From assembly GCF_004766045.1 (NCBI RefSeq), contig NZ_SPQQ01000010.1:124001-188000 (forward strand): DNA of 64,000 nucleotides. Reading direction: 5' to 3'. Each line of letters begins with the position of its first letter. The stretch's first letter is position 1. The stretch is from Desulfosporosinus fructosivorans. GTDB taxonomy: Bacteria; Bacillota; Desulfitobacteriia; Desulfitobacteriales; Desulfitobacteriaceae. The notes under the pieces were generated by a model. It searched no databases and was not told the DNA's origin. It saw only the letters and a list, made by a program, of their open reading frames with translations. Positions 25,763 through 37,886 of the stretch are shown here, piece by piece. The position numbers were made by a program, and so were the translations under genes.

Positions 25763-25883
25763 TTAGCCACCCCCTTATATCTTATTATAGCAAGGAACAA
25801 AGCCCGGGTCAAAATTTTAAAATTATATCATACAAGTCTTAAGGCTGTCAATTTCCCTTTTTATCCCTTAATCCTCTTGAAAA

Positions 25884-25913
25884 TTGACAATAGCCTAGCC
25901 GTCTCGTTATAAT
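25884..25913 (+). promoter_or_regulatory. Consensus sigma-A promoter for the 25946 gene
   Basis: TTGACA (25884-25889), 18-bp spacer, TATAAT (25908-25913). Both hexamers match the consensus. It reads away from carD. Confidence 0.85.
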
Positions 25914-25945
25914 AGAGTAGGCAGAAAGGAGTGAGGATAGCACAC

Positions 25946-26338
25946 ATGGAACAACTCACTGACCAATTCCAAAGCACTGTAAAATCCCTGTTAATCCGTC
26001 ATCAAAGTATTTTGGATATCCTGTCTAAAGGACAAGAAACGTCTGCGCGTGTTAACCGTGCCGTTGTTAAATCGGTGACAAGTTGCGGTTGCCATTCAGT
26101 CAATGCGCAAAAGAAACCCATACCGCCAGATGCCAACCTTGCTGATCTCAAAGAACTCTTGAACAGCCAACTCGAAGGCTTTATTTGCGATAACTGCCGA
26201 GACATCATAGAAGCGGAATTAGGCAAGCAGCTCTTTTACATAGCAGCTCTATCCAATGCCTTAGATATCTCGCTGACTGATGTACTAGACCACGAGAACA
26301 AAAAACTTCAGACTTTAACAATTTTCAACTTGACCTAA
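25946..26338 (+). CDS. Conserved clostridial protein with CGCH and CxNC motifs, function unknown
   Basis: I recognise this as a type of protein found beside carD in clostridial genomes but cannot name a function. The 130-residue product is mostly helical, with SCGCHSVNAQKK near residue 47 and CDNCRDIIEAELGKQLFYIA near residue 82; the two Cys pairs could bind a metal. The C-terminal part ISLTDVLDHENKKLQTLTIFNL is amphipathic. The ATG at 25946 follows GTGAGGATAG. It has a perfect sigma-A promoter upstream and an intrinsic terminator downstream, so it is a single-gene unit, one of few on the plus strand in this part. Confidence 0.8.
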   Translation: MEQLTDQFQSTVKSLLIRHQSILDILSKGQETSARVNRAVVKSVTSCGCHSVNAQKKPIPPDANLADLKELLNSQLEGFICDNCRDIIEAELGKQLFYIAALSNALDISLTDVLDHENKKLQTLTIFNLT

Positions 26339-26375
26339 GTCACCCCCCCAATATGTAATAATGATTTAAGTCTTT

Positions 26376-26397
26376 AAGCTCCTGCAGTGCAGGAGCT
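26376..26397 (+). terminator. Intrinsic terminator after the 25946 gene
   Basis: AAGCTCCTG / CAGGAGCTT stem with a short loop, followed by TTTATATTAT, 38 bp after the stop codon. Confidence 0.85.
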
Positions 26398-26441
26398 TTT
26401 ATATTATACCACTTATCCAAGAATGCTATGAATTATTAATA

Positions 26442-28586
26442 TTATCCAATCAAGGAAATTATTAATAATCGAGAACTTTTTAGATACTTTAAGGCCCCAT
26501 TGATATCAAGTTCACTCATGAAATGCATTTTTCTTTGCAACTCACCTGTCAAATAAGGCGAGTATTTTGTTACCAGCCACTCATTTTCCCGGATAAAGAA
26601 AACAAGATCCGAGTCCTCCCAAGTTTGCTTTTGGATCTTTTCGATAAGATCTTGAAAGTCGACATGCCTAGGCAAAACAATACGTTCTATTTGACTCGGT
26701 CTGCGTTTGATATCTAACCCAGATACAGCTCTGAGCATCCAGATCAACGTATTGCAAATTACAGTTCCTACGTAAGGTTCAAATACCAGAGCATCACGAA
26801 CCTCCCAAACAACACGCTGATTTGAAGATACATGATATAAGGAATACTTTTTCCTTGCACCCGCGAGACACTCGCTAGCGTTGTCATCAAGATATTGAAA
26901 TTGATCTTCCGAACACAATACCTCATACATTGTTTCTGCAATTTTACGATTGATCTTACCTGGATCACTCAGATACTTTGGTTTCTTAGCATTCACGGCA
27001 GTGTGGACAAAAATCTTATTCTTTTTGGAATCCATTTCCTTAATCGTCCATAATTTCCCTGCTAAGATGACGTTTTCCCCAATATCAAACCTTACCCCTC
27101 GATCGAGTTGACCGATCTTGCGCATGCCACAGTATACATCATAATATGAAGCCATCATGAATACTGAGTAGAAATCTTTCCCTCTTAACAATCGCTCTCC
27201 CTCGAGCCCTACAATATACTCATTGAGTCCAGGAACAACCTCCAACATTTCCGTACTCACCATATGCTCAATTAGGCTTACTAAGTCCTTCTTGGGAAGT
27301 TTATAAAAGGTCGCATTATTTTCGAGGGCATGAAGGAGCCTGCTCCAAGTTACACCATTGTACTCCTGACAGAGAGAGATGATCTGGTGGAAGGCAATAT
27401 CATAGGGTGCAGGACAACCCACAGCTGGCTCAATCCAGCCTTCTAGCAAGAGCTTCATGACGGCAATAGACTGTATCAGGCTGTCTTCACGGGTCGTATA
27501 CATCTGAAGGATCTGAGCATCCTCTTGTTTTCTGCCAGAACGTCCAATGCGTTGCTTAAGAGAGGAAACCGTAAAGGTCGTATCCAGTTGACAGACAAGA
27601 TCAAGCGCTCCTATATCTATGCCGAGTTCGAGAGAACTAGTACAGACAATACTTTGGGGGGTCTTTGAGGTTGCCAACCTTTTCTCCACGTACTCTCTTT
27701 CTGCTTTGTCGATTGAGGAGTGATAAGCAAAGTACCCTTCTTGGATTCCCTCCTTTTCCGCCAAACGGTTAAGCATGACTGTCGTTTCTTCCACCGTGCC
27801 TCTACTATTGCAAAAGATCAGAGATTGATAGTCTCGAGTAACCTCTCTCAGGTCTTCTAAGAGCTCTAAGGGCATTTTCCCGTCCTTTCCAGCCGGAAAA
27901 TGCAATAAGGAATACTGAAGTTCCTTGTCCTCGTCAGAGACTTCGACCACTTCAACCTCTTCAGGATGATGAGGATTAACCCATTGTTTGATGAGGTTAA
28001 AATTTCGGATGGTTGCCGATAAACCTATGATACGTGGTTGAACCCTTGTATACGAATACATCCTTGATAACAGAGAACGTAGTTGCGCCCCTCGCCGAGA
28101 ATCGAGAAACGAGTGGATTTCATCAATCACGATGAATTCTATCCCCTGGAAAAGGGGTAATAAATGTCCAGTCTTGTTAATAAACAAGCTTTCTAGGGAT
28201 TCAGGCGTGATCTGAAGTATTCCGGAAGGATTTTTAAGGAGTTTGTTTTTTTGACTTTGCCCTACATCCCCATGCCAACGATGAATGTTTATCTCACTGT
28301 TTTGGCATAAGCGTTCAATCCGTTCAAATTGGTTATTGATTAACGCTTTAAGGGGAGAAATATAGAGTACCTTCAGCTCCGCCTGGGCACGATCTTCTAT
28401 CTTAGTGATAATAGGTAGAAAAGCCGCTTCGGTTTTTCCCGAAGCTGTGTTTGCAGAAACTATGATATCTGATTCCGTCTGCATGATCAGCGGGATCGTT
28501 TGATCCTGAACCGAGGTGAAATTTTCCCATTTCATAGCCCAGATCCGTTGTTGCATTTTCTCTGATAAAAGCTTAAAGGTATCCAC
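26442..28586 (-). CDS. Lhr-like DEAD/DEAH superfamily II helicase
   Basis: A 714-residue helicase of the Lhr type. The Walker A motif ANTASGKTE is at residues 45-53 (a TASGKTE form typical of this family), DEIH at 155-158, SATI near residue 193, and motif VI QRIGRSGR near residue 350. About 330 residues follow the two RecA-like domains, as in Lhr proteins. It is the last gene of a three-gene group with a BrxD-like ATPase and a TerB-N protein. Lhr-like helicases of this kind are also part of some BREX systems (BrxHI), but no PglX or PglZ is in this window. The substrate is probably DNA or an RNA-DNA hybrid; the role in defence is inference. Confidence 0.88.
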   Translation of the reverse strand: MDTFKLLSEKMQQRIWAMKWENFTSVQDQTIPLIMQTESDIIVSANTASGKTEAAFLPIITKIEDRAQAELKVLYISPLKALINNQFERIERLCQNSEINIHRWHGDVGQSQKNKLLKNPSGILQITPESLESLFINKTGHLLPLFQGIEFIVIDEIHSFLDSRRGAQLRSLLSRMYSYTRVQPRIIGLSATIRNFNLIKQWVNPHHPEEVEVVEVSDEDKELQYSLLHFPAGKDGKMPLELLEDLREVTRDYQSLIFCNSRGTVEETTVMLNRLAEKEGIQEGYFAYHSSIDKAEREYVEKRLATSKTPQSIVCTSSLELGIDIGALDLVCQLDTTFTVSSLKQRIGRSGRKQEDAQILQMYTTREDSLIQSIAVMKLLLEGWIEPAVGCPAPYDIAFHQIISLCQEYNGVTWSRLLHALENNATFYKLPKKDLVSLIEHMVSTEMLEVVPGLNEYIVGLEGERLLRGKDFYSVFMMASYYDVYCGMRKIGQLDRGVRFDIGENVILAGKLWTIKEMDSKKNKIFVHTAVNAKKPKYLSDPGKINRKIAETMYEVLCSEDQFQYLDDNASECLAGARKKYSLYHVSSNQRVVWEVRDALVFEPYVGTVICNTLIWMLRAVSGLDIKRRPSQIERIVLPRHVDFQDLIEKIQKQTWEDSDLVFFIRENEWLVTKYSPYLTGELQRKMHFMSELDINGALKYLKSSRLLIISLIG

Positions 28587-28657
28587 GATATTCCAACCCC
28601 CATTTTACCCTACGATCTACAACGTTTGTTGCTCATTAATTCAGTTGTTCCTATACG

Positions 28658-28691
28658 TTTGTAGGGACAATTCATGAATTGTCCCTACAAA
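28658..28691. repeat. Dispersed palindromic repeat, copy 3 (perfect)
   Basis: A perfect 34-bp palindrome: TTTGTAGGGACAATTCA followed by its reverse complement. It directly abuts the stop codon of the BrxD-like ATPase gene and lies in the gap before the helicase gene, where its RNA would form a strong hairpin. Confidence 0.95.
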
Positions 28692-30017
28692 CTAAATCTT
28701 TGTTGAACTAAACCGGCTTACTACCGGGTTTTTAGGAGGCAGAGATTTCGCATTTTCCTGTTCTCCAAAGATCTTCGAGCGATCAAACCCTGGATTCTGC
28801 TGCAATATATTTAATCCACCAATAAAGGTTCGAATGATATCACTTGTTGTTAAATTTTCTAAAGCTCCAGGTCTTGAATATTCCCGAATGATAAACGAAC
28901 GGATTTCTTCTCCACTAACCTTGAGTTCATAGTCATAATGGAATGCATGGATTTCTACCAGGTTCTTGAGCAAGAGGTACAACTCTTCCTGTTTAAGAGG
29001 GGTGAGCTTAATCACGGGTTGAGATAAGTCCCTGAACTCATTACTTTCAAACTTATTTAGGACTAGTCTTCGTTTGATGGCTTCATAACTATAAAGCCCT
29101 CTCCGTTCGTCTTCGAGAAACTCAGGGGTGCCACTAAAAATGATATACAGACCTGAGACATTGCCTTGTAGTGTATCGTTAAAAATCTTGAGAATAGTCT
29201 CGTAATTCTTATCTCTAGATTGTGGATGGGTTATTTTATAAAGGTTAATGGCCTCATCAAAATTGACGACCAAACCAGAATACCCGATTTGGCGGACGAA
29301 CTGAGCTATGACCTTAATATAATCATAAAAGTTAGAGTCATCAATAATGTCTCTGACTCCTAGATCCCCTCTAGCCTCAGTTTTAGTCGAATATTCCCCC
29401 CGTAACCAACGCAGTGCGTTGCGCTGTAGAGAATTGTTATCTTCTACAAAGCCCTTAAAATATTGCATTAGGACTCGTACGAAATCAAATCCACCCACGA
29501 GTCGATCCATTTTATTTGCTGTCTCCGCAATCTCGTTTTCCACATCAATAATAAATTGTGGATTATCATACGCTACAGACCCATACCCTTTTTCTTGCAT
29601 GGTTTTGGTCTGTACGTCACTGATCCATTGATCCAAAATCATAGGCATTGCATTTCCATCGGGAGAAGTAGCCACCGCTAGATTTTTCATCATTTCTGAG
29701 TAAGTAGCCACCGCCTTACCCTCAGAGCCATACAGTCGGCGATTGGCATCAAAATCAACCTTGCCGACCACGAATTTTTCACTAAAGGCAACTTGTTGGA
29801 TTAAGGCTTGCAGAAACGTTTTACCCGAACCAAAGGGTCCAATAATAAATTTAATAACCGAGGCTCCGTCCTTCACAGTCTCTAAATCTTTCAAGATTTG
29901 AGTAGCCTCTTCTTTGCGCCCGACCATAATATGCTCCAGACCCCTATTAGGGACAACTCCGCCATAGAGTGAGTTTAGAATTGCTGTTGAATCTTTTTTA
30001 CGAAGTTTTCCTGCCAC
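28692..30017 (-). CDS. BrxD-like ATP-binding protein (BREX-type ATPase family)
   Basis: A 441-residue P-loop ATPase. Walker A GPFGSGKT is at residues 60-67, followed by a long region with a Walker B-like hydrophobic strand and acidic residues in LVVNFDEAINLYK (around residue 252) and a sensor-type IIFSGTPEFLED. The N-terminal GVVPNRGLEHIMVGR and the overall pattern match the DUF2791/BrxC-BrxD family. I start it at a GTG (30017) with GAGGAGG nine bases upstream, four bases after the TerB-N gene stop, so the two are translationally linked. Its likely role is an ATP-driven partner of the helicase; the cellular target is unknown. Confidence 0.85.
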   Translation of the reverse strand: MAGKLRKKDSTAILNSLYGGVVPNRGLEHIMVGRKEEATQILKDLETVKDGASVIKFIIGPFGSGKTFLQALIQQVAFSEKFVVGKVDFDANRRLYGSEGKAVATYSEMMKNLAVATSPDGNAMPMILDQWISDVQTKTMQEKGYGSVAYDNPQFIIDVENEIAETANKMDRLVGGFDFVRVLMQYFKGFVEDNNSLQRNALRWLRGEYSTKTEARGDLGVRDIIDDSNFYDYIKVIAQFVRQIGYSGLVVNFDEAINLYKITHPQSRDKNYETILKIFNDTLQGNVSGLYIIFSGTPEFLEDERRGLYSYEAIKRRLVLNKFESNEFRDLSQPVIKLTPLKQEELYLLLKNLVEIHAFHYDYELKVSGEEIRSFIIREYSRPGALENLTTSDIIRTFIGGLNILQQNPGFDRSKIFGEQENAKSLPPKNPVVSRFSSTKI

Positions 30018-30021
30018 GAAT

Positions 30022-31722
30022 CTATTCCTCCTCGGTAAGTCTTTGAAGCACTTGCTTGAAATCTTCATTAAACCTTAATACGTCTCCCTCTTGTTCAATG
30101 AGGTTGTCCCCCAAATAGTCCAACGACTTCTCGTTGAGGGAGCTCATAAAGACCCCCATCATGACCCCACGAGTTTTAAGGTAGTTAATCCCCTCTTGCT
30201 TGACCCTTATGAGATCTTTGAACCCAAGGAGAAAATCGCATTCCAGCTTGCTAAGCTTGTCCATGAAAAGCTCAAAATCCTCGTCCTCGGACACCTGTGT
30301 CAACAAATTCAGGACAATTTGCTTTTCTCTCGGCTTTTCCTTGTCTATCTCCGATTTTTTCTCTTGCTCTGATATGTGCAGCTTCTCAAGCGAATCATTT
30401 CCTTTTTCCAGATCCGATATTTCTTGATGCTCAAATTCCTCCTCATCATACCGAAGAGCAAAAATCTCTTGCAACTCCTTGCTTTCCTTATCCAGCGTAT
30501 CAATCCGTTCTAAGTCAAACTCAATTAGAGGGATCACCGTAACGTCTTGTTTTAGAGTTTCAGGAGGCTCCGGAATCGAACTACCCAAGCCCGCATACCC
30601 TTTACCTCGAGCCTTTACAAAGCGACTCTCAGACAATAGTGAAGGCTGCCCTTTCTCCTGAAACAACTCTTGGAGAGCATTTTTGAAACCCTCTGGGAAG
30701 AGAGTTTCATCGACGTTTAATTGACGCTTTTCTCCAGCTTTAATTCTAGCAATGTTTTTCGCTAGGACAAATAAGGCTGATAGATCTGTTCTCATTTTTA
30801 ACGATGGAAACCGCTTGGCTTCCAGTTTATTCTGAACCCTGCGAGCAATCACTGCATTTGAGAATAATCGTCGTTCAAAACTGGCCGATGCATCGAGTGG
30901 TATCCATACGTCTATGAGTTTTTCCCCTTGCACTTGATACTCCCTCTCTAAAAGCGCAAGCGAAATTTTGAAGACTTTATAAATAAGATTTCTATTCGAT
31001 TTAAAGAAAGCTGTTTTATTATATCTGATAAATCGTTTCCAAAAGGTAATAGAAACCGTCTCTAATTTATTCTCAAATTGTTTGAGTGTCTCATAATCGG
31101 AAGACTCATAGTTACGTATCTTAGCGTTCCACTTCTTTTCAAGCTCATACTCCTCTAACTCATAGCAAAAGTCACAAATCCAGCGTGGCAGAAAATGATC
31201 CAAACTATAATGCTTATCCTGATAATTCAGGAAAATCCGATCTAACATGCTTAAATTAAAGGCTGCATTATCGTTAAATGTGTAATTTAGAAGTTCATAA
31301 ACAAATATAAAGACGTAACCCGAGCCTGTATTTAGGTAGTTACCACTCAGTACCTCTTTTCTCCAGTAGAAGTACCATTCCTTTTGGGCCTTATTCAGAG
31401 TGTCAAACAATGGCTCGTAAGTATTAAGAAATACCGGTTTTACAGGTTTTCCCGGTGTCTCCTGTCGCCTAGAATAGGTTAGAGAATCCTTGCAGAACTT
31501 AAAACTATCTCTTTGAAAATCTGCCTCTTGAAGAGGCTTTCCCTTGATAGTTTCGAGAAATTCTTTAACTGGCAGTGGTGTTTTGACATGTCGATATTCT
31601 GGTAGAATCAAGGCTTCCACAGAATATGTTAAATTACCAGTAGCAGATATTTTGTTATTGCCAAGCTCTGTGGCCCGTTTGATATCAAACTTATCCAACA
31701 TGTTCAAGAGTTTATCGATCAT
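30022..31722 (-). CDS. TerB N-terminal domain protein
   Basis: A 566-residue protein with the TerB-N region at about residues 112-148 (KEWYFYWRKEVLSGNYLNTG and VFIFVYELLNY), then several hundred residues with conserved aromatic and basic positions, a highly charged Glu/Lys linker around 420-480, and a C-terminal helical part. TerB-N proteins were described by comparative genomics as parts of Ter-linked stress and DNA-processing systems together with ATPases and superfamily II helicases, exactly the partners found here. The ATG at 31722 is preceded by GAAGGACTGGG. It is the first gene of the cassette; no clear promoter consensus was found. Confidence 0.83.
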   Translation of the reverse strand: MIDKLLNMLDKFDIKRATELGNNKISATGNLTYSVEALILPEYRHVKTPLPVKEFLETIKGKPLQEADFQRDSFKFCKDSLTYSRRQETPGKPVKPVFLNTYEPLFDTLNKAQKEWYFYWRKEVLSGNYLNTGSGYVFIFVYELLNYTFNDNAAFNLSMLDRIFLNYQDKHYSLDHFLPRWICDFCYELEEYELEKKWNAKIRNYESSDYETLKQFENKLETVSITFWKRFIRYNKTAFFKSNRNLIYKVFKISLALLEREYQVQGEKLIDVWIPLDASASFERRLFSNAVIARRVQNKLEAKRFPSLKMRTDLSALFVLAKNIARIKAGEKRQLNVDETLFPEGFKNALQELFQEKGQPSLLSESRFVKARGKGYAGLGSSIPEPPETLKQDVTVIPLIEFDLERIDTLDKESKELQEIFALRYDEEEFEHQEISDLEKGNDSLEKLHISEQEKKSEIDKEKPREKQIVLNLLTQVSEDEDFELFMDKLSKLECDFLLGFKDLIRVKQEGINYLKTRGVMMGVFMSSLNEKSLDYLGDNLIEQEGDVLRFNEDFKQVLQRLTEEE

Positions 31723-31866
31723 CCCAGTCCTTCGCCCTTCTATTCGTAAAGTTCTACCGTAACATAGCCCTGTTTAATAATTATAGCATTAATTGATGCC
31801 AATGGTATGTTATCTACATTTTGAATTAGGAAGTGCTCGGAAAATCCAGCCAAATGTCACGAATTC

Positions 31867-31974
31867 ATCCAATCCTGACTCCTACTCCTACAAGTAGGAT
31901 TGGTACCTCGAGCTCTGCTTTGGTGTGGGTAGACTCGCTCCAAAGTCGATGTTCAACTATAGTTGAACGAGATC
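31867..31974. repeat. Dispersed imperfect repeat (CTCC-ACTCCTACAAGT type), copy a
   Basis: ATCCAATCCTGACTCC, then CTACTCCTACAAGTAGGA and CTCTGCTT, ending with the palindrome TTCAACTATAGTTGAA and CGAG at 31952-31971. The same series of blocks occurs in reverse orientation at 48488-48570, so this is a repeat of about 105 bp. Shorter forms are at 32366-32398 and 44011-44064. It occupies most of the 31723-32056 gap upstream of the TerB-N gene, where I see no gene. Confidence 0.65.
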
Positions 31975-32001
31975 CTGGTGAGTAGTTCAAAGTATAAAAA
32001 A

Positions 32002-32026
32002 GGTACCCGTTTTAATAACGAGTACC
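32002..32026 (-). terminator. Intrinsic terminator after the rubredoxin gene
   Basis: Minus strand stem GGTACTCGTT / AACGGGTACC with a short loop followed by TTTTTTATA, about 30 bp after the rubredoxin stop codon. Confidence 0.85.
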
Positions 32027-32056
32027 TACTGCCGCTGAAAGATCAGCAAACGTCCC

Positions 32057-32233
32057 TTACATGGGTTTAAACATTGTTTTGTTGGCACCACATAATGGAC
32101 ATCTCCAAGTATCTGGCAACTCCTCAAAGGGAACATCCTTCGGTATTTTGCTTTTTTTACAACCTTTTTCTGAGTTGTAGATATATCCACAATTTGGCAT
32201 TTGGCATTGGTGAATTGTACTCTCTTCGCTCAT
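32057..32233 (-). CDS. Rubredoxin-like protein with a CX4C first motif
   Basis: A 58-residue iron-sulfur-type electron carrier. The second half is classic rubredoxin: IPKDVPFEELPDTWRCPLCG with two iron-ligand cysteines. The first knuckle is CQMPNCGYIY, so the first two ligand cysteines are separated by four residues instead of two. A similar CX4C rubredoxin has been reported from Desulfovibrio desulfuricans. The ATG is at 32233 with a GGGGGT-type ribosome site. It lies between the TerB-N cassette and a group of redox genes, and ends with a strong terminator. Confidence 0.9.
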   Translation of the reverse strand: MSEESTIHQCQMPNCGYIYNSEKGCKKSKIPKDVPFEELPDTWRCPLCGANKTMFKPM

Positions 32234-32365
32234 TTTATGCTCACCCCCTGTCCCATTTTATCATCAAGTTTGGGAAACTCCAATACTTTACCTTGATAAT
32301 ACAGCCCATCTGGTTCTGCACCTGCAAAAAAAGTTCTAGGTCCCATGAATGGATAATTATTATTT

Positions 32366-32398
32366 ATCCAATCGTGAGACCCCACTTATTGTAAGATT
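32366..32398. repeat. Dispersed imperfect repeat, copy b (partial)
   Basis: ATCCAATCGTGAGACCCCAC, then TTATTGTAAGATT. The first twenty bases match the start of the copy at 44011-44064. The rest of 32234-32502 shows only a possible nine-codon Cys-rich ORF (32404-32433, minus). Confidence 0.45.
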
Positions 32399-32502
32399 AA
32401 CTATTAGCAGCTTCCACCGCAACTTCCGCACATGGTCTTTCGTCTAATATAGCTTCAGTAGCTTTGTCTATTCCCCGCCTAGGACAAGACACTTGGACTT
32501 TG

Positions 32503-32820
32503 TTATTTTACGTAATCCACTATTATTTTCTTTACGCATTCTTCGCAATTTAGTATTTCTAATGAGTTTGGCAATTTGCTTCTTATTGTGCAATCTCGGT
32601 TATACTGCTCGCATGCTGCACCACTTACTTTACCTTTTGAAGACTGCATCATCGTTATTCCTCGATAGATTACTTCGCATCTTGCGATACTATCTGAATC
32701 GAGTGTCCAATCATCAAAATCGGATAGTGCCTCCAAGACTGAATTATATTGAGAATACTCTGGATTTCTCGCACGTATTGGGCTCACTACGACCCATATC
32801 TTATTAGGATTGTCTTTCAC
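32503..32820 (-). CDS. Hypothetical protein with Cys pairs
   Basis: I do not recognise this 105-residue protein. The start is a GTG at 32820 with GGAGG nine bases upstream, which argues for a real gene. The sequence begins MKDNPNKIWVVVSPIRARN, is hydrophilic, and has cysteines at CEQYNRDC and CEEC in the C-terminal half that could bind a metal. No signal peptide or membrane segment is seen. An open frame on the opposite strand covers the same region but has no ribosome site. Confidence 0.55.
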   Translation of the reverse strand: MKDNPNKIWVVVSPIRARNPEYSQYNSVLEALSDFDDWTLDSDSIARCEVIYRGITMMQSSKGKVSGAACEQYNRDCTIRSKLPNSLEILNCEECVKKIIVDYVK

Positions 32821-33046
32821 TTTAGTTGGCCTCCAATAATTTGACTCACATCTGCTGAACTAGACTCTAAGTATTCTACATCATATCCTTCACATAGTCT
32901 ACGCGTTTTGCTAGTTTCCTACAATAAAGCTCACCTCTTTGGAAACATCCTCCCGTCTTGCTTTTTACATCGAGTATTTTTTCTCTTTCTATAATAATAT
33001 CTCTCCCCAAAATTCTCATTGATAAGTGTACTTATTATATTTATTT

Positions 33047-33085
33047 TGAGAATAGCACTTGCTCCTTAAGCAAGTGCTATTCTCA
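33047..33085. terminator. Long hairpin after the activase gene
   Basis: A 17-bp perfect stem TGAGAATAGCACTTGCT and its reverse complement with a five-base loop. It starts four bases after the activase stop codon on the minus strand. The T-run (GTTTTT) is on the plus-strand side, so on the minus strand it may act mainly as an RNA-protecting or weakly terminating hairpin. Confidence 0.7.
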
Positions 33086-33089
33086 GTTT

Positions 33090-33830
33090 TTATGCAAGTA
33101 ATGCTGCACCTAAAGCAGCGGTTAATTCGGGTTCTGGTGGGATCACAACCTTCCCCTTTAACTCCTGTTCGAGGAAGCTGACAAGGAGGGTATAATGTGC
33201 CCCTCCCCCAGTGAAAATCAAACGTTCTGGATGTCCCACCGACTCGACAAAAATCGCGAGACGTTTTGCCGTACTTTTAAAAAGTCCTGCTATTACTTCA
33301 GGCTTAGGGATCCCTTTAGCAAGCATCGTGATAACTTCCGATTCGGCAAACACTGTACACATGGAATTAATGGGCATTGGCTTAGCTTCTGCAGCTAAAG
33401 CCAGTTCCTCAGTCGTTAAATCTAGTCCTTTAAGTATAACATCTAAAAAACGCCCTGTTCCAGCAGCACATTTGTCATTCATGATAAACTGGACAACTTT
33501 TCCCGCGCTGTTTTTCCTAATGACCTTAGCGTCTTGTCCCCCTAAGTCGAGAATGTACGCGTTATCGGGAAAATAAGCATGACACCCTCTACACTGACAG
33601 GTGATTTCTGTAATCACCCTTCCTTCGGGAAAGTTTACTCGTCCATACCCTGTGACCACGAGTTTTTCGGGTTTTTCCCCGTGTTCTTGGACGTAAGACT
33701 TTAAGAGGGTCAAACCCGCCTGGACAGAATCGAAACGGGAGAGTATGACTTGGCTGTATATCCGTTCTCCGTTTTCTAACACGACCAATTTTGTGTTAAC
33801 AGAGCCGAGATCTAACCCAGCCTGCTTCAT
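33090..33830 (-). CDS. ATP-dependent activase of the 2-hydroxyacyl-CoA dehydratase/double-cubane reductase family
   Basis: A BadF/BcrA/HgdC-type ATPase that injects low-potential electrons into its partner enzyme. It has the actin-like ATPase phosphate loop GLDLGSVNTK (residues 5-14), ILDLGGQDAKV (93-103), and the bridging [4Fe-4S] cluster cysteines C121 (NDKCAAGTGRF) and C158 (SMCTVFAESE), close to the spacing in HgdC. The 246 residues fit the single-domain activase length. It overlaps the partner gene by four bases (ATGA), so it is translationally coupled to it. Confidence 0.93.
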   Translation of the reverse strand: MKQAGLDLGSVNTKLVVLENGERIYSQVILSRFDSVQAGLTLLKSYVQEHGEKPEKLVVTGYGRVNFPEGRVITEITCQCRGCHAYFPDNAYILDLGGQDAKVIRKNSAGKVVQFIMNDKCAAGTGRFLDVILKGLDLTTEELALAAEAKPMPINSMCTVFAESEVITMLAKGIPKPEVIAGLFKSTAKRLAIFVESVGHPERLIFTGGGAHYTLLVSFLEQELKGKVVIPPEPELTAALGAALLA

Positions 33831-35095
33831 GCACGAATCATCTCGATTAAAGCCTCAATCCGGGTCAAGAGCTGCCCTTGATCTTCTTCGGAAAAATCAC
33901 TTTCTAGTCGCAGGAAGGGGATCTTTTGCTTCTCCATTTCTTTGCCCACAAAATAACCTTCCACGCCATAGGTCTGGCAGAACTGGAGGGTAAAATCAAT
34001 CACGGCGTCTGCTTTTAAGTTTTCAGCCATAAATGTTATATCTTCCATGCGCCCTTGATTCGGGGTGAAGCAAGCGCAATTCACCTTTAAAGGGCGCTTG
34101 GCAATATTGGCGAGCATATCCGACACGTTATCTGCGGGCTCAGTGATATCCTTATAATAGCGTTCCCCCGTACAGGTTTCCTCCCCAACAACGACTGCCC
34201 CTGCTTGTTCGATTAAGGCATGAAGTTTCCATGCTGGAAGTGGTTGCGGAGTTCCCGTAACTAAAATCCTTGGTGCATCAACGGGTGCAACTCCGATTCC
34301 CTCTTTAACCCGCACATCAAGTTCATCACACAGAGCATTAACTTGAGTAGCGAAGCGAACTGGATCGTCAAAGAAAGAGAGTTGATTGATCAGCAGTACA
34401 TCTAAGCCGTGAATAGGAGCCGGTTTATGTTTCCTTAAATCTGCTAACCTTTGGAGCGCTTGGCGTTTAGCGTTGATCTTCTGAATTCCCTGAGCAAGAT
34501 TCTCCTTGGTTAAGTCCACCTTGGTCTCACGTTCAATGAATGAGGCAAATTCACGCACTTCTTCTTCCCATAAACGGGCATCTTTGGATTCTTTCTTTTG
34601 TGGAAGGTCCATCACATAGGTTGGAATATGTTCATTGAGAATTTCCCACGCCTTCTTCTTCCCATCACAGGTCGTCTCCCCAATGACCCAATCGGAAACT
34701 TGAAAGTACGGGCAAATTCGGTCTAGTTTAAAGCCCATGGTGGACTTAATCAATGGACAGAGGTTTCGAGGCAAAACCTTTTCCCCCGATGAAACCGTAT
34801 ACTGGGCCCCAGCACATAATCCGATACTGGCGCTCCCCGTCGCTACGACAATTTCCTCCGGAACATAGACGCAAAAGGTCGAGAATACCTTAGCGCCAGC
34901 TTCTTTCATTGCATAGAGTTCATGTACGCGAATTCCATGAACATCTCCGACTATCATATCAAAATACCCCATCGCTTTTGGGCGATTAGGCCGATCCAAG
35001 AATAGGCTCGTAAAAATCGCGGGTACAGGTGCTAAGAACTCATCGTGCTTCTCTAAATCCATACCTAGGGCTGTCCATAATTCTCTGTTATCCAT
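33827..35095 (-). CDS. Double-cubane cluster protein-like reductase (HgdB/FldC family)
   Basis: A 422-residue member of the 2-hydroxyacyl-CoA dehydratase D-subunit superfamily. The cysteines at residues 75, 94, 113, 128 and 143 and later NCAC and FCQTYG could serve a large Fe-S cluster. A single such subunit with a single activase and no second dehydratase subunit is the arrangement of the double-cubane cluster protein of Carboxydothermus, which reduces small molecules such as acetylene and azide in vitro. A true dehydratase normally has two subunits. The physiological substrate is unknown, so I make no specific substrate call. Confidence 0.85.
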   Translation of the reverse strand: MDNRELWTALGMDLEKHDEFLAPVPAIFTSLFLDRPNRPKAMGYFDMIVGDVHGIRVHELYAMKEAGAKVFSTFCVYVPEEIVVATGSASIGLCAGAQYTVSSGEKVLPRNLCPLIKSTMGFKLDRICPYFQVSDWVIGETTCDGKKKAWEILNEHIPTYVMDLPQKKESKDARLWEEEVREFASFIERETKVDLTKENLAQGIQKINAKRQALQRLADLRKHKPAPIHGLDVLLINQLSFFDDPVRFATQVNALCDELDVRVKEGIGVAPVDAPRILVTGTPQPLPAWKLHALIEQAGAVVVGEETCTGERYYKDITEPADNVSDMLANIAKRPLKVNCACFTPNQGRMEDITFMAENLKADAVIDFTLQFCQTYGVEGYFVGKEMEKQKIPFLRLESDFSEEDQGQLLTRIEALIEMIRA

Positions 35096-35141
35096 TTTTC
35101 ATCCTCCTCATACTCTACTGGTTACTCAAATTCATGAACTT

Positions 35142-35480
35142 TTAAATATGTATCACTTTATCGCTTTCATGCATAATGGCGATAATCTCAACCATCGTAG
35201 AAACCTTTCCAACCTCGATCTTATCCTTAATACCGTAATAATCCAAACAGGTCACACAAGCCAATAGAGTGACACCCGACTCCTCAGCTAAACTTTTCAG
35301 GGCATCGACACCGGTAAATTCGGGTAGCAAAAGCTGCACCCCTTTTTCTAAGAAAAGAATATGGGACGGTTTCTCAGTCGCCTCCATGAGCTTCAAAAAG
35401 AAACTATGCATCAGGCGTTTGCCCAACTCTGGGTCTTGATGACCAATGGTGTCTGAGCTGATAAAGTAGGTAAAGGACAT
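35142..35480 (-). CDS. DsrE/YedF C-terminal-like protein
   Basis: A 112-residue protein of the DsrE-like fold. The middle carries LLACVTCLDYYGIKDKIEVG, resembling the C-terminal domain of YedF-type sulfurtransferase-like proteins in selenium/sulfur metabolism, with two cysteines that could carry persulfide sulfur. I use the ATG at 35480 (GAGGGGAG upstream); the open frame upstream has no such site. It lies 46 bp before the double-cubane-type reductase gene and may be the first gene of that unit. Confidence 0.82.
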   Translation of the reverse strand: MSFTYFISSDTIGHQDPELGKRLMHSFFLKLMEATEKPSHILFLEKGVQLLLPEFTGVDALKSLAEESGVTLLACVTCLDYYGIKDKIEVGKVSTMVEIIAIMHESDKVIHI

Positions 35481-35651
35481 AATAATCTCCCCTCTATTCA
35501 TAACATTTAACTTATTTAATTGTATCACTAAATATGCATGTACGAAAGACCCAACTTAGCATTATGAGCCCCTCTAAGTTTATCCAATCATAGGATTCCC
35601 GCTTCAAGTGGGAGCGGGAATCTTATGGGAAGTCCTTTTAAAAAAACAAAA

Positions 35652-35676
35652 AAGTCCGGATTTGACTCCGGGCTTT
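35652..35676 (-). terminator. Intrinsic terminator after the Spo0E-like gene
   Basis: Minus strand stem AAGCCCGGA / TCCGGACTT (one mismatch) followed by TTTTTTG and more T, 7 bp after the stop codon. A second hairpin GATTCCCGCT/AGCGGGAATC lies further on at about 35593-35620. Confidence 0.8.
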
Positions 35677-35682
35677 GGGATA

Positions 35683-35862
35683 TCATACGATTTTAGTTTC
35701 CTCGTGTTTGATCAGACTATAAACTTGATTTAACAGTTTGTCCAACTCACGACTAGATGTAACTACTTCTTCAGAAGTTAGTTCTTTACATAAGGCAAAT
35801 TTATTCAGTTGGTCGCGTTTTGTTTCAACGGCACTTAGTAACTCTAGTAAATCGTCCCTCAT
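35683..35862 (-). CDS. Spo0E-like sporulation regulatory protein (aspartyl-phosphate phosphatase)
   Basis: Members of this family dephosphorylate Spo0A~P and delay sporulation. The 59-residue product from the ATG at 35862 contains the signature SRELDKLLNQVY (S-x2-LDxLL-x2-Y) in a two-helix arrangement of the normal short length. Ribosome site GAGGAAGG precedes the start; a longer frame upstream is probably not used. It ends in a terminator, so it is monocistronic. Confidence 0.88.
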   Translation of the reverse strand: MRDDLLELLSAVETKRDQLNKFALCKELTSEEVVTSSRELDKLLNQVYSLIKHEETKIV

Positions 35863-36212
35863 GAGATCACCTTCCTCAACTTCCAATTGGCTAAGATACA
35901 AAAGCTTAGAAGTATAAGGTTAATCCGCTTTAATTAAATAAGACACTCGGTGACAATATGATATTACTAGGAAAATGCCAAGATAGATTGAAATCAAGAA
36001 ACAACTATGAATAACTACCTTCTCTCAAAATAAAACTTAATTTTATTCTTTATTTAATATTATTACTAATTTATTTAATTGGCAAGAAATTATTATCCAT
36101 AAATAGGAAAAATGCTGTTGAATTATGGAGTATTTTCTGTTTTAGCTGAGCTCGTTTGCTCCTTGGCGTTATATTCTGCGATATTGGACAAAATAGCTGT
36201 GAGGTGATTTAA

Positions 36213-36407
36213 ATGACATGTAATGTTGGTAAAACGGAGCAAATTGCAAGAATTGTAATTGGTGTAGGAATCGTTCTTATAGGTATATCCTACAAAAGCT
36301 GGTGGGGAATAATTGGACTCGCGCCTATCATAACCGGTACAATTCGTTATTGCCCCGCTAGCGATGCCTTAGGGATTTCAACTTGCGACGCTAATAATAA
36401 GCAATAG
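36213..36407 (+). CDS. YgaP-like (DUF2892) small membrane protein
   Basis: A 64-residue protein that starts MTCNVGKTEQIARIVIGVGI and has two hydrophobic stretches (about residues 12-26 and 29-45), as in the transmembrane part of YgaP; no rhodanese domain is fused. In other bacteria these occur with sulfur-transfer proteins. Ribosome site GTGAGGTGATTTAA. It is a plus-strand single gene ended by a terminator. The preceding 35863-36212 gap is very A/T-rich and shows no other gene. Confidence 0.85.
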   Translation: MTCNVGKTEQIARIVIGVGIVLIGISYKSWWGIIGLAPIITGTIRYCPASDALGISTCDANNKQ

Positions 36408-36419
36408 TTTTCAGCCTAC

Positions 36420-36443
36420 GGCCTTATATAAGGCCATTTTTTT
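36420..36443 (+). terminator. Intrinsic terminator after the YgaP-like gene
   Basis: GGCCTTATATAAGGCC palindromic stem followed by ATTTTTTTTG, 12 bp after the stop codon. Confidence 0.85.
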
Positions 36444-36464
36444 TGCAATTAAGGAGTTACGAGT

Positions 36465-37886
36465 TCATCTTAAACTATCTTCCGTCATTGGAAATTCGGT
36501 TTCAATCTTAGCTGGACTCTTCATGTTTAAATCCAGAATGACGTCATACAACGTGTTGAGCTCGATGATTTGAAGATTTTTGTATTTTGAAGAATCTCTA
36601 AGAGCATTCTTTGCTATGTAGACACGCTTAAATCCCATTCTGTCGATTTCCCGAATTCTCACTTCTATAGAAGGAACTTTCTTAAGTTCTCCAGTAAGTC
36701 CTACATCTGCTACAAACAAAGTATCATTGGGAATCGCTTTGTCTTTCACAGATGAAACAATACACATGATAATAGCTAAGCTTACGGATTGCTCTTTGAG
36801 CTGAAGTCCACCTGTCGTTTTAATGACAACATTTTTATCGTACAGGTTAATCTTGCCTCGTTGTTCCAGGATAGAAATCAAGGTATTTAATTGATCTCGT
36901 CTCAAACACTCCGCAATTCTTGATGGATAGGGCGTGAACGACTTAGAGACGAGACTTTCAATTTCAACAATAATGGGGCGAGTTCCCTCTTTGATCACAG
37001 TCAATGCACTACCTGAAACCTTTTGCCCCTCTCCCCTTTGAGTCATAAAGAATTCAGATGGATTATCAATTGATAACATCCCTTGTTCAGTCATCGAGAA
37101 GAAACCGATTTCTCCGGTGCTCCCGAACCGATTCTTCGAGCACCATGCCCCCCTCAATTCTTCCCCATTTTCCCCATTGAGAATTAACACGGCGTCGACC
37201 AGATGTTCTAACGCTCGAAGCCCCGCGATTTCATCGTCTTTCGTCATTTGACCAACCATGATCACGGCCCTGGGGCGGCCGTTATTTTTCGCAATTTTTA
37301 AGAGTTCATTAGCGCACTCCATCGTTTGGATCGGTGAACCAGGCCGGGAATTATGTTCTTCAAGAGTGAACGTTTGAATTGAGTCAATAATAATCAAATC
37401 TGGGTCAAGCTCCTCAATTGAGTCCAGAACATGGTTCATACTTGTATCAGAATAAATCCAGATGTTACTGTTGCTTCCCTTCAGAATTCGATCAGACCTA
37501 CTTTTGATTTGACTATCACTCTCTTCTGCTGAAGCATATAAAACCTTGTAGCCCTTGTTGGCAACATCATCGGCCACTTGTAAAAGCAAGGTTGATTTTC
37601 CCGCACCAGGTTTTGCAGTCAAGATAATGATGGAATCTTTAACGATACCACCACCCAGAACTCGGTTAAATTCACTGATACTTGTCACGATTCTATCGCT
37701 GTTGCCGGCTAAGACCTCAGATAACCTCTTCGGAGAAGTCTTTCTCTTACTCGACGACGATGCTGTTTTTGGTTTATTTCCAAATTCTTCAAATGTATTC
37801 CATTCTTCACAGCTTTGACATTTACCCAGCCATTTTGGACTTTCTGATCCGCAATTAGAACAGCGATAAATCACCTTGATTTTCAT
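36465..37886 (-). CDS. radA: RadA (Sms)-like DNA repair protein, divergent
   Basis: RadA is a RecA-like ATPase that helps branch migration in recombination. The 473 residues show the N-terminal zinc finger (CSNCGSESPKWLGKCQSCEEW), a Walker A AKPGAGKST near residue 91, the RadA-specific SKNRFGSTGEIG near residue 249 and a C-terminal Lon-protease-like domain. The Walker A and neighbouring residues differ from the usual GDPGIGKST, so this may be a divergent copy. The position beside clpC agrees with radA elsewhere, but disA, which often follows, is not here. Confidence 0.88.
   Translation of the reverse strand: MKIKVIYRCSNCGSESPKWLGKCQSCEEWNTFEEFGNKPKTASSSSKRKTSPKRLSEVLAGNSDRIVTSISEFNRVLGGGIVKDSIIILTAKPGAGKSTLLLQVADDVANKGYKVLYASAEESDSQIKSRSDRILKGSNSNIWIYSDTSMNHVLDSIEELDPDLIIIDSIQTFTLEEHNSRPGSPIQTMECANELLKIAKNNGRPRAVIMVGQMTKDDEIAGLRALEHLVDAVLILNGENGEELRGAWCSKNRFGSTGEIGFFSMTEQGMLSIDNPSEFFMTQRGEGQKVSGSALTVIKEGTRPIIVEIESLVSKSFTPYPSRIAECLRRDQLNTLISILEQRGKINLYDKNVVIKTTGGLQLKEQSVSLAIIMCIVSSVKDKAIPNDTLFVADVGLTGELKKVPSIEVRIREIDRMGFKRVYIAKNALRDSSKYKNLQIIELNTLYDVILDLNMKSPAKIETEFPMTEDSLR

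What the first reader, a model, noticed from the sequence alone, without database searches (positions are those of the whole stretch)
26442..31722. TerB-N, BrxD-like ATPase and Lhr-like helicase form a possible DNA-processing or defence cassette
Three genes in a row, on the minus strand: a TerB-N protein, an ATPase of the BREX BrxC/BrxD type (starting 4 bp after it), and an Lhr-like helicase. BrxD and BrxHI are members of known BREX types, but no methylase, PglZ or Lon-like protein is here, so this is not a BREX system as described. Comparative work on Ter systems listed TerB-N proteins with ATPases and superfamily II helicases. The cassette sits in an accessory stretch between carD and radA with a perfect palindromic repeat inside. 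It may be a small stand-alone system with unknown trigger.
Basis: partly seen in the sequence, partly recalled or inferred. Interest (0 to 1): 0.7.

Follow-up and report, generated by a model that had tools for sequence, protein, structure and literature searches.

The report
Shango anti-phage operon in Desulfosporosinus
The three genes are an apparently intact copy of Shango, a three-gene bacterial defence system already shown to protect other bacteria against phages, so the find is real but not new.

Summary
Three same-strand genes (TerB_N/TerB_C protein, BrxC/BrxD-type ATPase starting 4 bases after it, Lhr-like SF2 helicase) lie at 26442-31722. They are not an undescribed cassette. All three match, in order, the PADLOC models of the Shango anti-phage system: SngA 1.6e-37, SngB 4.2e-165, SngC 2.3e-198. 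SngB and SngC score far better there than on BrxD or BrxHI. Shango was tested against phages in P. aeruginosa and E. coli (PMC10250203).

In 33 loci with a strong SngB hit, found across sampled Bacillota, SngA is always directly upstream. SngC is directly downstream in 32; the other runs off its contig. The block is a clean insertion of about 5.6 kb, absent from two congeners that keep the flanking genes. The palindrome between sngB and sngC is a repeat dispersed in this genome, not a system part.

The catalytic motifs of SngB and SngC are intact. One SngC residue (Tyr288, His in the 31 compared homologues) is unique to this copy. Shango's molecular mechanism is listed as unknown in a 2026 review, and nothing here resolves it. 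A side observation: SngA in other genomes carries variable N-terminal modules, some without any Pfam match.

The parts
30022..31722 (-). sngA: 566-aa TerB_N + TerB_C protein, minimal form without a long N-terminal extension or membrane segment
   Evidence: Pfam TerB_N 5.4e-20, TerB_C 2.1e-9; PADLOC SngA 1.6e-37; extension survey
28692..30017 (-). sngB: 441-aa BrxC/BrxD-type P-loop ATPase, GTG start 4 nt after the sngA stop; Walker A GPFGSGKT, Walker B with D254/E255
   Evidence: Pfam BrxC_BrxD 2.6e-146; SngB 4.2e-165 against BrxD 1.8e-50; conserved residues kept
26442..28586 (-). sngC: 714-aa Lhr-like SF2 helicase with intact motifs (TASGKT, DEIH, SAT, QRIGRSGR); Tyr288 where the compared homologues have His
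   Evidence: SngC 2.3e-198 against BrxHI 4.6e-129; conservation
28657..28692 (.). 36-bp perfect palindrome in the sngB-sngC spacer; dispersed repeat of this genome, judged not part of the system
26418..32047 (.). approximate extent of the inserted block; congeners G001 (L053) and G017 (L056) join the two flanks directly with about 30-55 bases between them
32001..32027 (-). terminator-like hairpin between the upstream rubredoxin-like gene and sngA, near one junction of the block
   Evidence: consensus match only

Best explanation
The cassette is a horizontally acquired Shango anti-phage system (sngA-sngB-sngC), apparently intact, in a Desulfosporosinus chromosome. Shown here: gene content, gene order, preserved catalytic motifs, conserved co-occurrence, and insertion into a variable carD-radA interval. 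Inferred: SngB (BrxD-like ATPase) and SngC (Lhr-like helicase) form an ATP-driven motor that engages phage DNA, and the TerB-type SngA acts as the scaffold or switch coupling recognition to a block of phage replication. No nuclease, protease or methylase domain was recognised, so a blocking or signalling outcome is preferred over direct cleavage. The identity is about 0.95 likely; the mechanism about 0.35.
For: PADLOC hits to all three Shango models in the right order. Pfam domains agree. SngA and SngB adjacent in 33 of 33 loci, and SngC adjacent wherever the contig continues. Published Shango has the same three parts (TerB-like, ATPase, DEAD/DEAH helicase) and reduces phage plating (PMC10250203). 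Motifs conserved. Empty sites in L053 and L056 and the same site filled in G020.
Against: No phage data exist for this copy. SngA's match to the SngA model is the weakest of the three. Tyr288 in SngC departs from an otherwise constant His, so reduced activity cannot be excluded. Mechanism support is by analogy only; the SngA fold prediction failed (mean pLDDT 33) and no solved relative of SngA or SngB was found by sequence.
Confidence: 0.9

Rival explanations
1. A reduced or derived BREX (type 2/3-like) system that kept only BrxD and BrxHI and gained a TerB protein.
For: SngB and SngC are related to BrxD (1.8e-50) and BrxHI (4.6e-129).
Against: Both match the Shango models far better. The NCBIfam BrxD equivalog cut-off is not reached (170 against 350 bits). 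No BREX component among ten neighbours; the only PglZ-domain hit in the genome is weak and on another contig.
Confidence: 0.03
2. A DNA-repair or stress-response cassette whose main role is not phage defence.
For: The helicase has sequence similarity to Lhr and ligase-associated repair helicases (PDB hits to Lhr-type helicases), and TerB proteins were originally tied to stress (general knowledge).
Against: Patchy distribution, clean insertion and empty sites, plus direct anti-phage data for the same gene set (PMC10250203).
Confidence: 0.05
3. A decayed, non-functional Shango copy.
For: Tyr288 in SngC is unique among 32 aligned sequences; about 100 bp including a repeat separate sngB from sngC where two relatives (L044, L047) have a short gap.
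Against: All three frames are open, the catalytic motifs are intact, and ribosome-binding-like sequence precedes sngB.
Confidence: 0.1

Closest known systems
Shango (sngABC; P. aeruginosa PA14 and E. coli)
   Same: Same three proteins in the same order; all three match the Shango models; self-contained operon in an accessory region.
   Different: This copy has a minimal, diverged SngA; it lies between a carD-linked gene and a rubredoxin gene, with no other PADLOC defence system among the neighbours tested; Tyr288 in SngC.
BREX types with BrxD and BrxHI
   Same: Related ATPase and Lhr-like helicase pair.
   Different: No PglZ, methylase, BrxC or Lon-like component nearby; a TerB protein instead; scores much lower on the BREX models.
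Bunzi and other TerB-containing defence systems
   Same: A TerB-type domain in a defence context (PMC10952713).
   Different: SngA here matched no PADLOC family other than SngA; partners differ (general knowledge).

Membership tests
Shango | SngA: TerB-type protein | tested here: met
   SngA model 1.6e-37, residues 77-563 against 84-527 of 528; TerB_N and TerB_C
Shango | SngB: P-loop ATPase | tested here: met
   SngB model 4.2e-165; Walker residues G60, G63, G65, K66, D254, E255 kept
Shango | SngC: DEAD/DEAH helicase | tested here: met
   SngC model 2.3e-198, 3-702 against 5-717 of 720; motifs kept
Shango | Three genes adjacent, same strand, order A-B-C | tested here: met
Shango | Protects against phages | not testable with these tools
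   Shown for other members (PMC10250203), not for this copy
BREX | PglZ-domain protein in the locus | tested here: not met
   No PADLOC BREX hit among ten neighbours; the genome's only PglZ hit is weak and on contig C34
BREX | BrxD equivalog-level ATPase | tested here: not met
   170.3 bits against a cut-off of 350
BREX | Methylase and Lon-like (BrxL) component in the locus | tested here: not met
   None in the neighbours scanned; RadA is housekeeping

The most novel reading that the evidence does not exclude
Shango is modular: the SngA N-terminus is an exchangeable sensor or effector module (none in the window, TM2 or other hydrophobic segments in some loci, and an unnamed module within a 340-840 aa extension in others) on a constant TerB-ATPase-helicase core, and the window holds the minimal form.
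Probability: 0.35. Interest if true: 0.4.

Novelty: already known. Interest (0 to 1): 0.15.

Why it matters
It adds a Shango copy in a sulphate-reducing Bacillota lineage and shows that the gene trio is tightly linked across the sampled phylum. The useful open question is how Shango works at all; comparing the minimal SngA here with extended and membrane-associated forms offers a way to ask which part senses phage.

Tried and rejected
BREX or reduced BREX: rejected on model scores and missing components. Palindrome as a regulatory part: rejected because it is dispersed in the genome and not conserved in the operon. carD-radA interval as a defence hotspot: not supported by reading the ORFs, which look mainly metabolic and signalling; those ORFs were not scanned against PADLOC. 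Phage or virus carriage: no SngB relative in the phage records or in viral contigs. Rfam: nothing. SngA structure: attempted, not usable, so no fold search was made. Solved relatives: none for SngA or SngB by sequence, none for the long SngA N-terminal module.

Full report
Observation. Three minus-strand ORFs occupy 26442-31722. The first carries TerB_N and TerB_C, the second is a BrxC/BrxD-type ATPase, the third a DEAD/helicase protein. The second gene most likely starts at GTG 30017, four bases after the first gene's stop, with an AGGAGG just upstream. The palindrome is at 28657-28692.

Identity. PADLOC names the three proteins SngA, SngB and SngC with E-values of 1.6e-37, 4.2e-165 and 2.3e-198; BrxD and BrxHI models score far lower, and the NCBIfam BrxD equivalog cut-off is missed. 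SngABC is Shango, described as a TerB-like protein, an ATPase and a DEAD/DEAH helicase. It gave 10-100-fold plating reductions for many phages in P. aeruginosa, and about 10-fold for two phages in E. coli (PMC10250203). A 2026 review still lists its mechanism as unknown (PMC12926258).

Co-occurrence. SngB was searched in 101 relatives and 398 genomes drawn from the phylum (23 hits at 1e-100). Flanking DNA was fetched for the strong hits. Counting the window, there are 33 loci. SngA is directly upstream in all; SngC is directly downstream in 32, and L049 ends inside sngB at the contig edge. Two of these loci have split frames (L111 SngC, L115 SngB). L112's SngA is weak on my profile but matches the PADLOC model at 1.1e-54. 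A fragment with a stop in G003 (L050) has neither partner. Weaker BrxC/D-like hits were not examined.

Setting. Close SngB relatives (88-95%) are Desulfosporosinus records, so the window is probably from that genus (inference). The carD-radA distance varies from about 0.6 to 17 kb among congeners. All loci checked keep a 140-aa ORF next to carD. In G001 (L053) and G017 (L056) the sequence equivalent to window 26405-26417 runs on to that of 32048-32064 with about 30-55 bases between, so the block of about 26418-32047 is an insertion absent there. G020 has Shango at the same place; five other Desulfosporosinus loci (L045-L049) show related operons without carD in the fetched stretch. Judged from the ORFs listed, the intervals mostly hold metabolic and signalling genes; only the window's own neighbours were scanned against PADLOC.

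Palindrome. A pattern for it finds 14 palindromic sites in the genome with up to 3 mismatches, against none for the reversed control. G020 and L047 have only a short sngB-sngC spacer without it, L046 and L048 have other sequence there, and L045 has a different palindromic insert. It is incidental.

Integrity. Across 31-32 aligned sequences the window keeps the Walker residues of SngB and the helicase motifs of SngC. SngC position 288 is Tyr in the window and His in the 31 others. Its effect is unknown.

Mechanism. The motor-plus-TerB-scaffold model rests on family knowledge, not on a test here. SngA's AlphaFold model was poor (mean pLDDT 33) with only six close sequences, so it was not searched against structures.

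Side observation. SngA's length before the invariant Tyr117 ranges from about 90 to 945 residues among full-length copies. Some loci have a TM2 domain (L110, L114) or other hydrophobic stretches (L113, L108). Others share an N-terminal module with no Pfam or PDB match (L038-L041, L101, L103, L104, L107). L112 also has a TerB core domain.

Noticed in passing
L038-L041, L101, L103, L104, L107: SngA carries a 340-840 aa N-terminal extension sharing a module with no Pfam or PDB sequence match. By eye it faintly recalls a helicase-type ATPase lobe without a Walker A; that resemblance was not tested.
   Followed up: partly
L108, L110, L113, L114: SngA with TM2 domains (L110, L114) or other hydrophobic N-terminal segments, suggesting some Shango systems are membrane-attached.
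   Followed up: partly
window 26442-28586 (SngC residue 288): Tyr where the 31 other aligned SngC sequences have His.
   Followed up: partly
window 25763-36465: The carD-radA interval is strongly variable in length (about 0.6-17 kb) in the genus, next to a conserved 140-aa ORF.
   Followed up: partly
window 31860-31985: Palindromic GTTCAACTATAGTTGAAC upstream of sngA, and a further inverted repeat (CCAATCCT...AGGATTGG) near 31870-31905; read by eye, not tested as operator sites.
   Followed up: no
plasmid collection: 681 plasmid records, mostly Klebsiella and Salmonella, encode a SngB-like ATPase at under 60% identity; whether these are Shango was not checked.
   Followed up: no
L050 (G003): Degenerate SngB fragment with an internal stop and no SngA or SngC, probably a Shango remnant.
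   Followed up: no
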